Shown piece by piece: positions 43,745-55,199 of a DNA stretch of 64,000 nt (the first letter of the stretch is position 1; every line of letters begins with the position of its first letter). The DNA comes from Ochrobactrum sp. CGA5. Lineage in GTDB: Bacteria; Pseudomonadota; Alphaproteobacteria; Rhizobiales; Rhizobiaceae. Under the pieces are notes generated by a model, which did not search any database, was not told the origin of the DNA, and saw only the letters and a list, made by a program, of their open reading frames with translations. Made by a program: the position numbers and the translations under genes. Location of the stretch: the NCBI RefSeq assembly GCF_006345815.1, contig NZ_VCIG01000005.1:434001-498000 (forward strand), given 5' to 3'.

Positions 43745-43837
43745 AGCGCAGATCGGATTGGGTGAGATCTGCGCTCTAACTTCTCCTATTTTAAGCATAA
43801 TCGATCCTCGTTTCACGCCGGTCGAATTATGCTTTAA
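43741..43837. repeat. Two-palindrome intergenic element (RIME/Bru-RS-like), also terminator
   Basis: First palindrome: 13-bp perfect stem TAGAGCGCAGATC / GATCTGCGCTCTA at 43742-43778, starting at the stop codon of the ATPase gene. Second palindrome: AAGCATAATCG / CGAATTATGCTT at 43793-43836 with a one-base bulge, ending inside the stop region of the convergent peptidase gene. Tandem palindromes of about 100 bases starting with AGAGCGC and AAGCATAAT occur as dispersed repeats in rhizobia and Brucella; membership is inferred from memory. Confidence 0.5.
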
Positions 43838-45579
43838 GCAACAGCATCCGGGGGAAACAATGCTTGCAAGGCATCATATGATGCCAGCACGGTTTCCATT
43901 TGTGCCGTGTGTCCCTTAACGAAGGCATCCCCATAAACCGTCTCGTCCGGATATTCGGTGATCAGCGTCAGCGGCACGGTGTGCCGGTCATCAACGCCGA
44001 CCAGACACGGAAACCCGTTGACAATGCGGAAACCGGTTTCGCCCGCATGTTGCTCGAACAGACTGATCTGGGCGTTGTTACAAGCGACCAATCCATCAAT
44101 AGAAGCCAGATGCTTTGTCACATGATCTATTAGATGTTCAGCTTCTTTTTCCCACGAAGCGTGGTGGCGAATAATCAGGAAAAAGCCCTTCGGCAGCGTC
44201 CACATAGCAAAGGAACGTGGCACGTAGCCGGATAGCGGTCGCGTCCATTCATGCGAAGGATAACCATGCAGGTTGACATGCAGCTTCGCATCCGTCCGCC
44301 TTTCTGCTTCGACCCGAATGGATTTTTCATAAAGCCGCTCACCCTTACGATATTCGAGATCGTCACCCAGCGCCGTATAGCGAGCAGCGTGATGCATATG
44401 ATGCGGCTGAAGTACGCAAAGCCGTTTGTGTATCTCGTATCCGTCAGGATTTTCCTGTGGTGAGATCGTGAAATGTGCGCCTTCGCGCTCGGCAAGCCTA
44501 CTGGCCGCACGCAACGCGCCGACAACGCCCGTCGTTTCATTGGCGTGCTGACCGGCACTGATCATCATCGCCGCATCACTGCCCTTACGATAAGTTGCGC
44601 GTACTGTTCTGCCTGAACGGGTCTTTGCCTCGAATGGCTCGCCACCCAGTCTAGCGATTTCACGGCGAATCTGATCGGCAGAAAGCGGCGCTTGCGCCGT
44701 CTCTAGGACCTGCTCCGCCGTCAATGCATCATCGGTGGAAAGTGGCCGCGTTTCCACTCTGACCGATGGTTCGGCATCGCAAAAGCGGACCTCCGGCACG
44801 ATCTGGCCCGGCTGCAAGCCGCGATCGCCAACCGGGCGACCGGACTTTTTCTGAAAGACTTCGAGCAGCGAGAAATAAATATCCTCGTGCATGGCTTCGG
44901 TGAGGCTCAGCGTTTCTTCATCGTAGGGCAAGCGACGGTCGGTTATCGGCAGGCTGACCGCAATGTTCAGCTCATCGAAATAGGGTTCGCCGCGCTTCCA
45001 GTCATGGAGCGCGACGCTTGAGATCGTGTCATGAAACAGCTTTTCATAGGAAGTTTCGTAGCGCGTGCTTTCTGTCTCACCGTCCTGCGCAACGGTCAGC
45101 CAGCCGGTCGGCGACACCAGCGTTTCGCCGATGAAATCCACATGCACGCGGTTTGGCGCAAAAACCCTGTGCTTCTCGCTTTGGCCATCGGCAAAAACCA
45201 GTTCGACTTCATAATGAAAATCGTCTTTGCCCGAAGGCGAGAAATCTATCTCCACCTCCGGCAGAAGCGCCGATAAGGGATAGGTCTCAAGAAGGAACCG
45301 GTTCTGCACGCAGGCGTCATGGCGTGGATAGCGGACCGCAGCCGACTTCAGCGCCGAGCCATCCACTTCTTCCAGAAAGAAATGCAGGAGCGGCTTATAA
45401 GCCGAGCGCAGTCGCGCCTCGACGCCCGCGGCGCGCAGCTTCGTTTCGGCCGCGAACCGGCTCGGCTGATCATCGAACAGCCAGGCCTCCGCCTTCGCGC
45501 CGCGCATTTGCGGCTTCAGCAAATAATCTACAAGCGCATGAACAGTACGCGGGTAGGTTTTCTCAAAAAGCACACTCAT
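43834..45579 (-). CDS. M14-family zinc carboxypeptidase-like protein
   Basis: A 581-residue protein. The C-terminal half has the M14 zinc site: H345 and E348 in SAGQHANET, the NPDGY segment at 377-381 typical of carboxypeptidases, and a third ligand H438 in VNLHGYPSHEW. The first 330 residues form a separate region of mixed strand character that I do not recognise. No signal peptide, so it acts in the cytosol. It overlaps the last permease gene of a peptide ABC importer by four bases and probably trims peptides brought in by that importer. The large N-terminal region could give substrate selection. Confidence 0.78.
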   Translation of the reverse strand: MSVLFEKTYPRTVHALVDYLLKPQMRGAKAEAWLFDDQPSRFAAETKLRAAGVEARLRSAYKPLLHFFLEEVDGSALKSAAVRYPRHDACVQNRFLLETYPLSALLPEVEIDFSPSGKDDFHYEVELVFADGQSEKHRVFAPNRVHVDFIGETLVSPTGWLTVAQDGETESTRYETSYEKLFHDTISSVALHDWKRGEPYFDELNIAVSLPITDRRLPYDEETLSLTEAMHEDIYFSLLEVFQKKSGRPVGDRGLQPGQIVPEVRFCDAEPSVRVETRPLSTDDALTAEQVLETAQAPLSADQIRREIARLGGEPFEAKTRSGRTVRATYRKGSDAAMMISAGQHANETTGVVGALRAASRLAEREGAHFTISPQENPDGYEIHKRLCVLQPHHMHHAARYTALGDDLEYRKGERLYEKSIRVEAERRTDAKLHVNLHGYPSHEWTRPLSGYVPRSFAMWTLPKGFFLIIRHHASWEKEAEHLIDHVTKHLASIDGLVACNNAQISLFEQHAGETGFRIVNGFPCLVGVDDRHTVPLTLITEYPDETVYGDAFVKGHTAQMETVLASYDALQALFPPDAVA

Positions 45580-54500: not shown

Positions 54501-55199
54501 GCACCGGAACCTGTCACCCGTGCGGCAGTACTCTATGCTTTCCGCGTGCTGGTCGAAGGCGATATTCCGATGAACGCGGGCTGCCTGCGACCAATCAAGA
54601 TCATTGTGCCGGAAGGCTCCATGCTTTCACCACGCTACCCGGCGGCCGTTGTGGCAGGCAATGTCGAGGTTAGTCAGGCTGTGACCAATTGCCTGTTTGG
54701 CGCCACCAAGGCGATGGCTGCAGCGCAGGGCACCATGAACAATCTGACCTTCGGCAACGAGGAGTATCAGTATTACGAAACCATCTGTTCTGGCGCACCC
54801 GCTGGTCCCGGTTTCAACGGCGCCGATGCAGTACACACGCATATGACCAACTCGCGCCTGACTGACCCGGAAATTCTGGAAACCCGGTTCCCTGTTTTGC
54901 TGGAGGACTTCCATATACGAGAAGGCTCGGGCGGTAAGGGCAAGTGGAACGCGGGCGATGGTACCAAGCGTACGATCCGCGCACTGAAGACACTCGAATT
55001 CGCCATTCTTTCTGGCCATCGTCGCGTGTCCCCCTTTGGGCTCGACGGCGGTGAAGCCGGTCAGACTGGCCACAACGAAGTGCGTCGCAACGATGGTTCG
55101 GTGGAGGTGCTGGGGAATTGCGACCAAACCATTCTGCAAGCAGGCGAAGCCTTCACTGTTATCACTCCAACTGGCGGTGGATATGGCAAACCTGAATAA
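51576..55199 (+). CDS. 5-oxoprolinase, ATP-hydrolysing, single-chain (HyuA-HyuB fusion)
   Basis: A 1207-residue enzyme. ATG 51576 follows GGGAG; an ATG 11 codons upstream lacks a ribosome site. Domains in order: hydantoinase-A N-terminal (WIDRGGTFTDVIG at the start, the phosphate-binding loop), HydA core with GFDMGGTSTDVAHFDGEYER near residue 293, HydA C-terminal, and from about residue 700 the hydantoinase-B half with HADIGGIAPGSMSP and VDFTGTSEQRSDNFNAPEPV. The fused order and length match eukaryotic-type OPLAH. It opens 5-oxo-L-proline to glutamate using ATP; hydantoin or related lactam hydrolysis is the alternative. It is divergent from the MarR operon. Confidence 0.85.
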   Translation: MSGTGRGVWDFWIDRGGTFTDVIGRDPQGQLHARKVLSENPSAYQDAAVHGIRLHLGLKTGEQVPAGVIGEVRMGTTVATNALLERKGERVALVTTKGFRDALRIGYQERKNIFATEIVKPEALYEKVIELNERVQADGTVETELAPAEAKAALVALKEQGYKSIAIALMHAYKFPAHEAEIARIARALNFEQVSVSHEVSPLIKLVGRGDTTVVDAYLSPVLRRYVAQVSKELDVERTGARVMFMMSSGGLTAADLFQGKDAILSGPAGGVVGLARTGETAGFPKVIGFDMGGTSTDVAHFDGEYERAFETEVAGVRVRAPMMLIHTVAAGGGSILHYDAGRFRVGPDSAGANPGPACYRNGGPLAVTDANVMLGKLLPEFFPPIFGPEQNQTLDVERVRELFTALADEIGDGRTPEAVADGFVRIAVANMVEAIKKISVQRGYDVTRYALNCFGGAGGQHACLVADALGMKNILLHPMSGLLSAYGMGLADIRATRQKALGVPLNSAAPAALKALGEELAQECAVELAAQGIEQAAVHSHLRAHIRYAGTDTVLSIEATFPSEDNADRLRTEFETAHKCRFGFIAENKALVIDAVEVEAIGGGAGKTEMSQLVENNLEAGTVRRSRFFSQGEFHDAGIVLREHIQRGQTVTGPAIIIEQNQTIVIEDGWQARLTAHDHVVLTRIKALPSRTAIGTEADPVMLEIFNNLFMSIAEQMGVTLQNTAYSVNIKERLDFSCAVFDAAGNLVANAPHMPVHLGSMDASVATAIRENSDIKPGDVFLINAPYNGGTHLPDLTVCTPVFDDENREIRFWVASRGHHADIGGIAPGSMSPLAVNIEQEGVYIDNFKLMDRGTFREDALANLLTGATYPVRNLTQNVNDLKAQIAANEKGVAELKKMIGLFGEDVVKAYMGHVQDNADESVRRVLDKLPDGHFTYEMDQGCQIEVRITIDKEKREATVDFTGTSEQRSDNFNAPEPVTRAAVLYAFRVLVEGDIPMNAGCLRPIKIIVPEGSMLSPRYPAAVVAGNVEVSQAVTNCLFGATKAMAAAQGTMNNLTFGNEEYQYYETICSGAPAGPGFNGADAVHTHMTNSRLTDPEILETRFPVLLEDFHIREGSGGKGKWNAGDGTKRTIRALKTLEFAILSGHRRVSPFGLDGGEAGQTGHNEVRRNDGSVEVLGNCDQTILQAGEAFTVITPTGGGYGKPE

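What the first reader, a model, noticed from the sequence alone, without database searches (positions are those of the whole stretch)
43834..55199. MarR-controlled peptide importer with an M14 peptidase and a divergent 5-oxoprolinase: possible pyroglutamyl/gamma-glutamyl peptide scavenging system
One minus-strand operon holds MarR, a fused GsiA-type ATPase, a family-5 binding protein, two permeases and an M14 zinc peptidase with an unrecognised 330-residue N-terminal region. Directly divergent is a full single-chain 5-oxoprolinase. Together they could import blocked or glutathione-like peptides, cut them, and open the released 5-oxoproline to glutamate. I know GsiABCD and OPLAH separately, but not this gene set as a described pathway.
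Basis: partly seen in the sequence, partly recalled or inferred. Interest (0 to 1): 0.7.

Follow-up and report, generated by a model that had tools for sequence, protein, structure and literature searches.

The report
Oxoproline regulon with swapped peptide importer
In a bacterium of the Brucella/Ochrobactrum group, a predicted pyroglutamate-opening enzyme is encoded back to back with a regulator, a peptide-type importer and a zinc peptidase; a DNA site shared with predicted pyroglutamate-uptake loci of related bacteria suggests that one kind of regulator likely controls them all, so the importer would feed blocked peptides into glutamate.

Summary
In detail: all seven genes lie where stated. 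The four importer genes recur with M14 in 74 of 80 related loci, and all seven genes in 37. The new evidence is regulatory. A 21-base palindrome between regulator and oxoprolinase (51489-51509) occurs once in the genome at up to 3 mismatches. A matrix trained only on importer-type loci scores above shuffles upstream of oxoprolinase in 58 of 58 fetched regulator-linked loci of other types and in 0 of 20 without the regulator. In 38 of the 58 a TRAP receptor gene lies nearby; the one compared is nearest to 2pfy and 2pfz, the Bordetella pyroglutamate receptors. In nine rhizobial loci the importer-M14 operon is unlinked yet keeps the site. Six of six examined genomes lacking this oxoprolinase have PxpA; the window's genome has none. 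So importer plus M14 look like an alternative supply line of a 5-oxoproline regulon. That the cargo is pyroglutamyl peptide is inferred; a conserved Asp in the binding protein points to a free amine instead. Glutathione import is not supported.

The parts
43834..45579 (-). M14-fold zinc peptidase (581 aa), predicted cytoplasmic; residues about 288-576 carboxypeptidase fold, 1-287 a confidently predicted part with no clear solved relative found
45576..46430 (-). ABC permease (DppC/GsiD type)
46436..47359 (-). ABC permease (DppB/GsiC type)
47424..48953 (-). family-5 substrate-binding protein with Asp417, invariant in 79 rows
48990..50825 (-). fused double ATPase of the importer (TTG start)
50839..51447 (-). 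winged-helix (HTH_27, MarR-like) regulator
51489..51509 (.). predicted operator, palindrome TTATCGACA-TTT-TGTCAATAA
   Evidence: only match at up to 3 mismatches in the genome
51576..55199 (+). single-chain predicted ATP-dependent oxoprolinase (ORF from 51543; start probably 51576, 1207 aa)

Best explanation
This is a predicted 5-oxoproline (pyroglutamate) regulon in which a winged-helix regulator likely acts through one palindromic site to control both a single-chain oxoprolinase and a peptide-type ABC importer with an M14 peptidase, and the importer and peptidase would supply the oxoproline by taking up pyroglutamyl or glutamine-ended peptides and releasing it in the cytoplasm. Related bacteria pair a regulator of the same family, the same kind of site and a related oxoprolinase with a TRAP receptor nearest to the pyroglutamate-binding ones, so the importer-M14 operon looks like a swapped or added uptake module. 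Steps: (1) a peptide crosses by the ABC importer (inferred); (2) M14, used as a carboxypeptidase, cuts pGlu-X to pGlu and X (inferred); (3) the oxoprolinase opens 5-oxoproline to glutamate with ATP (inferred from family and context); (4) the regulator is probably a repressor released by 5-oxoproline (inferred); (5) the conserved linkage and the shared DNA sequence are shown, that the sequence is the regulator's operator is predicted.
For: Linkage: 37 of 80 loci hold all seven genes, 74 of 80 importer plus M14. In 247 family genomes, of 150 listed oxoprolinase places those at >=78% identity to this one lie within 10 kb of M14 in 18 of 23, those at <=72% in 0 of 127; 39 of the 127 lie beside regulator and DctP homologue. 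The DctP compared (L098) is nearest to 2pfy (3e-98) and 2pfz (2e-91). Operator: unique in the genome; 58 of 58 regulator-linked and 0 of 20 regulator-less upstreams. In trans: 9 rhizobial loci without regulator or oxoprolinase nearby keep it at score 21.6, and in the four such genomes followed up the unlinked oxoprolinase-TRAP-regulator cluster carries it at 21.2. PxpA in 6 of 6 genomes lacking the oxoprolinase, 6 of 24 with it, 0 of 12 with the linked locus, none in the window's genome, in which no pyroglutamyl peptidase C15 was found.
Against: 40 of 80 importer/M14 loci have no oxoprolinase within 10 kb (39 have one, L021 a copy in broken frames), and 19 of 30 regulator-less importer loci lack a clear site, so the module is not tied to oxoproline everywhere. 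L027 has regulator, importer and M14 but only a weak site (13.9) and none at its unlinked oxoprolinase; in L069's genome the oxoprolinase has a site (17.1) but the importer has none. The binding protein keeps Asp417 in 79 of 79, at the place of DppA Asp408 and OppA Asp419, which bind a free peptide amine (recalled), against an N-blocked ligand. M14 has Glu409-Tyr410 (87 of 97 each) where carboxypeptidase A has Asn-Arg (recalled, motif reading), so its cut is uncertain. Of 23 oxoprolinases of the near clade three keep the regulator but no M14 and two neither. Six of 24 genomes have both oxoprolinase and PxpA; 11 PxpA regions carry no site. No activity, binding or expression was measured.
Confidence: 0.5

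Rival explanations
1. The importer-M14 operon is a general short-peptide scavenger for peptides with free amino ends; it came under the oxoproline regulator only because peptides are a glutamate source, and M14 releases ordinary amino acids.
For: Importer-M14 occurs beside other regulators (GntR/FCD in L063 and L069, LysR in L077) and without a clear site in 19 of 30 regulator-less loci; Asp417 conserved in 79 of 79.
Against: Regulator and site are otherwise found with oxoprolinase and a pyroglutamate-type TRAP receptor; M14 lacks the usual carboxylate-clamp residues (motif reading).
Confidence: 0.28
2. Gamma-glutamyl or glutathione scavenging: the importer takes up gamma-glutamyl peptides, and oxoproline arises from cyclotransferase action.
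For: GsiA-like fused ATPase (822 bits); one gamma-glutamyltransferase match elsewhere in the genome.
Against: GsiA, B, C, D all below cut-off; binding protein 26% identical to GsiB, about the same as to DppA (25%) and NikA (26%); GsiB has Ser where this has Asp417; no cyclotransferase among the seven genes; cyclotransferases elsewhere were not searched for.
Confidence: 0.1
3. The oxoprolinase homologue acts on a hydantoin or other lactam, and the cluster degrades that.
For: Best solved sequence match is an N-methylhydantoinase (E 9e-126); PMC8453981 (passages) warns that many genes annotated oplAB in Pseudomonas encode lactamases for other substrates.
Against: Relatives sit beside a DctP nearest to pyroglutamate-binding ones; PxpA is present in 6 of 6 examined genomes where this gene is missing; no hydantoinase partner among the 18 window proteins scanned.
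Confidence: 0.07
4. Neighbours without a functional link.
For: 2 of 80 loci lack importer and regulator but keep M14 and oxoprolinase; 4 hold M14 alone.
Against: All seven genes together in 37 of 80 and the same predicted site kept in trans.
Confidence: 0.04

Closest known systems
PxpR-controlled pxpTABC of Corynebacterium glutamicum (PMC13274462, passages read, part of the abstract among them)
   Same: Divergent regulator next to a dedicated 5-oxoproline uptake and oxoprolinase system; PxpR is reported as a 5-oxoproline-binding repressor.
   Different: GntR regulator, APC-type transporter and PxpABC enzyme; here a winged-helix HTH_27 regulator, ABC importer plus M14, and a single-chain enzyme of another family.
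TRAP receptors DctP6/DctP7 of Bordetella pertussis with pyroglutamic acid (passages of PMC5812351 and PMC13274462; Rucktooa 2007 not held)
   Same: DctP homologues sit beside a regulator of the same family and an oxoprolinase in 39 of 127 general-type places; the one compared is nearest to 2pfy/2pfz.
   Different: No such receptor was found in the window's genome (E<=1e-60); its importer is an ABC system with a peptidase.
GsiABCD glutathione importer of E. coli
   Same: Fused ATPase followed by binding protein and two permeases.
   Different: All four below the equivalog cut-offs; the E. coli genes follow iaaA, here M14 ends the operon.
Eukaryotic-type 5-oxoprolinase (OPLAH)
   Same: Single chain with hydantoinase A and B parts and conserved ATP and metal motifs.
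   Different: Bacterial gene in this context; direct sequence comparison not made.
Caprolactamase CapAB / N-methylhydantoinase
   Same: Same ATP-dependent lactamase superfamily.
   Different: 362 and 174 bits against cut-offs of 1000 for CapA and CapB.

Membership tests
eukaryotic-type 5-oxoprolinase | HyuA- and HyuB-type parts fused in one chain | tested here: met
   four Pfam domains in order in one 1218-aa frame
eukaryotic-type 5-oxoprolinase | ATP motifs and metal ligands (CapA motifs; CapB D41, H99, D102, H124; from passages of PMC8453981) | tested here: met
   DRGGTFTD at 25, DMGGTSTD at 302, GANPGP at 363; D747, H804, D807, H831 by the alignment, letters checked. These are shared by the whole superfamily, so they do not single out oxoprolinases
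eukaryotic-type 5-oxoprolinase | closest characterised relative is OPLAH | not tested
   no OPLAH sequence was fetched; none is named among the 8 PDB matches; likeness only recalled
eukaryotic-type 5-oxoprolinase | ATP-dependent opening of 5-oxoproline | not testable with these tools
   context only
GsiABCD glutathione importer | NCBIfam equivalog cut-offs | tested here: not met
   GsiA 822/1077, GsiB 168/594, GsiC 256/463, GsiD 239/484
M14 carboxypeptidases | fold and zinc ligands HxxE...H plus catalytic Glu | tested here: met
   HxxE also aligned to 7eqx by profile
M14 carboxypeptidases | Asn-Arg pair that clamps the C-terminal carboxylate | tested here: inconclusive
   motif reading only: D407-L-E409-Y410 in place of DxNR; no residue-level structural alignment was available
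pyroglutamate-binding DctP subfamily (for the TRAP loci, not the window) | sequence nearest to DctP6/DctP7 | tested here: met
   one protein: 2pfy 3e-98, 2pfz 2e-91, then 6wgm 3e-78, the other rows shown 4e-21 or weaker; link of these codes to DctP7/DctP6 is recalled
PxpR (GntR) | GntR-type regulator | tested here: not met
   HTH_27
PxpABC 5-oxoprolinase | PxpA (PF03746) in the genome | tested here: not met

The most novel reading that the evidence does not exclude
A 5-oxoproline regulon that feeds on pyroglutamyl peptides rather than free pyroglutamate: a swappable ABC importer and an M14 enzyme with an unknown N-terminal domain act as a new kind of pyroglutamyl-peptide hydrolase, cutting pGlu-X from the carboxyl side, under a new family of 5-oxoproline sensors with a conserved operator.
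Probability: 0.33. Interest if true: 0.75.

Novelty: new variant of a known kind. Interest (0 to 1): 0.58.

Why it matters
Pyroglutamate forms spontaneously from glutamine and blocks peptide ends, yet PMC13274462 says that to its authors' knowledge regulation of bacterial 5-oxoproline metabolism had not been studied before their GntR case. Here a second, unrelated regulator family, its predicted operator and two alternative uptake modules can be named and tested together in rhizobia. It also gives an M14 family that matched no NCBIfam model (2423 relatives at E<=0.001 among the 7994 scored) a likely metabolic setting.

Tried and rejected
Glutathione reading: dropped as leading idea. Hydantoin reading: kept as minor rival. 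Control of pxp genes by the same regulator in genomes that lost the oxoprolinase: 11 fetched PxpA regions from 8 genomes held no site (one region was cut short by a contig end; two of the genomes, G634 and G648, do have an oxoprolinase). Fold of the M14 N-terminal part: no clear PDB relative; a missed relative is not excluded. Neighbours of importer-M14 loci without the regulator: GntR/FCD, LysR, EamA, ADH, GST and others in the 20 proteins scanned, no common partner. Literature: searches (0 papers; 1; 19, 12 listed; 2; 75, 10 listed) showed in the rows listed no paper on this gene set; the library lacks most subscription journals, so this does not show absence. PMC2394761 (one passage) lists a 5-oxoprolinase in the O. 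anthropi proteome; identity with this gene not checked.

Rows dropped or not seen: of 132 regulator matches, the 21 at 116 bits or less were not typed into; oxoprolinase places were listed only up to 150, so one search counts those 150; 38 of 39 TRAP loci, 20 of 33 regulator-only loci and 20 of 55 regulator-less loci were fetched; one of 80 binding-protein rows with a stop was left out; the tree holds the 52 oxoprolinases of at least 85% length without stops; L032 was not held (30 of 31 searched). The Fisher value 0.0016 and the rank tests are not corrected for relatedness.
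Full report
What is there. The window lies in a 4.6 Mb genome whose M14 protein is nearest to Brucella/Ochrobactrum ones (91%). All seven genes are confirmed. Minus strand, in order of transcription: winged-helix regulator, fused ATPase, family-5 binding protein, two permeases, M14; the M14 start overlaps the permease stop by 4 bases. Divergent on the plus strand: the oxoprolinase, the only Hydantoinase_B match in the genome.

Conservation of the set. A scan of GTDB species genomes with an M14 alignment gave 431 relatives; the best 80 were kept with up to 10 kb flanks. 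By tblastn (rechecked), 37 of 80 hold all seven genes; 7 have regulator, importer and M14 without an intact oxoprolinase (one of them, L021, has it in broken frames); 30 hold importer and M14 without regulator or oxoprolinase (in 9 of these M14 is just under the 60% line); 2 hold oxoprolinase and M14 only; 4 hold M14 alone. So importer plus M14 is the core (74 of 80), and regulator plus oxoprolinase a second unit. M14 is patchy: 35 of 247 genomes of the family and 7 of 385 of the class at a stricter limit, the window's own genome included in both.

Two kinds of oxoprolinase locus. In the same 247 genomes oxoprolinase relatives are common (198). Of 150 listed places, 23 are at least 78% identical to the window's; 18 of these have M14 within 10 kb, 17 also the regulator. 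Of 127 at 72% or less, none has M14, 72 have the regulator and 39 of those also a DctP homologue. Reading four of these loci shows oxoprolinase, DctP, DctM and regulator together. The DctP of L098 matches 2pfy and 2pfz best. By recall these are DctP7 and DctP6; PMC5812351 and PMC13274462 (passages) say they were solved with pyroglutamic acid, and the latter adds a KD of 0.3 uM for DctP7 and a eukaryotic-type oxoprolinase gene in the vicinity. A tree of 52 oxoprolinases puts the 38 importer-linked ones in one 45-row group with support 100, together with four rows without importer or M14 and three with M14 but no importer; its root is for drawing only.

The site. Between the divergent starts lies TTATCGACATTTTGTCAATAA, 51489-51509. 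It is the only match at up to 3 mismatches in the whole genome, with none for the reversed pattern. In 53 upstream regions, exact half-sites number 65 against 0.1 expected from base shuffles. A palindromic matrix from the 39 importer-type regions (7 distinct sites) was then tried on regions it had not seen: 38 of 38 TRAP-type, 20 of 20 regulator-only, 0 of 20 regulator-less, each against the 95% level of first-order shuffles. No site was found in L004, L009 and L106, where regulator and importer are missing. L009, L091, L092, L093, L097, L099 and L100 have no half-site even at one mismatch; of these L093 has the regulator, and the matrix gives it a weaker site (18.5).

In trans. Of 30 importer-M14 loci without regulator or oxoprolinase nearby, 9 (Rhizobium, Neorhizobium and one unnamed Rhizobiales) carry the site at 21.6, about 240-315 bases upstream of the ATPase match; two Thalassospira loci carry one at 16.7; the other 19 score 11.5 or less, three of them above the 99% shuffle level of 9.7. 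The largest score in 76 control stretches of about 9 kb was 16.5, so the two Thalassospira sites are weak evidence. In the four such rhizobial genomes followed up, the oxoprolinase lies elsewhere with DctM, DctP and regulator and the site at 21.2. L038 and L043, with regulator and site (25.4, 27.0) at the importer, have an unlinked oxoprolinase that carries the site too (19.5, 20.3). Cases that do not fit: L027 (regulator at the importer, weak site 13.9, none at its oxoprolinase), L059 (oxoprolinase at 57%, no site at either), L069 (site 17.1 at the oxoprolinase, none at the importer), and L194, where regulator and DctP lie together without a site in the 5.5 kb read. Even so the trans pattern is the strongest sign that importer-M14 belongs to the same regulon and is not just a neighbour.

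Loss and replacement. L013, L014 and L019 keep regulator, site (29.0), importer and M14 but no oxoprolinase was found in their genomes at E<=1e-100; all three have PxpA. Over 30 genomes searched, PxpA is in 6 of 6 without an oxoprolinase of 57% or more and in 6 of 24 with one (Fisher 0.0016, not corrected for kinship); it is in 0 of the 12 genomes examined with the linked locus and not in the window's genome. This supports 5-oxoproline as the substrate. The PxpA regions read do not carry the site.

Binding protein. It is 26% identical to GsiB, 25% to DppA, 26% to NikA, 23% to OppA. Asp417 is invariant in 79 rows and aligns with DppA Asp408 and OppA Asp419, known from the literature (recalled) to bind the peptide amine; GsiB has Ser. 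This speaks against glutathione and, if the Asp keeps that role, against N-blocked peptides; a lactam NH could also be its partner. It is the main weak point of the pyroglutamyl reading.

Verdict. The set is a real, conserved and very likely co-regulated oxoproline unit, a new variant beside the GntR/PxpABC system of Corynebacterium and the TRAP/oxoprolinase loci. The cargo of importer and M14 is the open question.

Noticed in passing
L004, L009, L106 (G630): Regulator, ATPase, binding protein and both permeases are missing, which leaves M14 directly divergent from the oxoprolinase; the predicted operator is not found there either.
   Followed up: partly
window 55463-57838 (+): Cystine-type amino-acid ABC transporter directly downstream of the oxoprolinase on the same strand; also there in L004, L009, L013, L014, L019 and L106. 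Most other near loci end before it.
   Followed up: no
window 40054-43744 (+): FecBCDE-like siderophore or metal importer that ends just before M14, convergent with it; its ATPase is next to M14 in 16 of the 20 nearest loci (L002-L021).
   Followed up: partly
L063, L069, L077, L038: Importer-M14 loci beside GntR/FCD (L063, L069) or LysR (L077) regulators without the winged-helix one; L038 has a GntR/FCD gene next to the winged-helix one.
   Followed up: partly
L027, L028, L029, L031: M14 at 62-64% identity in Alcaligenaceae and Serratia, with the importer in L027 and L028, which suggests transfer between classes.
   Followed up: no
L090 (G586): The regulator-oxoprolinase pair with a full operator beside a TPP enzyme, an SDR and a second, distant oxoprolinase-like gene instead of an importer.
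   Followed up: no
L193 and L194 (G482): Two regulator copies in one genome, one at the importer-M14 operon (site 16.7) and one at TRAP genes (no site in the stretch read).
   Followed up: partly
G559:C136:3827-5522 and L021: G559: M14 gene split into two frames. L021: oxoprolinase and ATPase in broken frames. Broken copies or assembly errors; left as they are.
   Followed up: no
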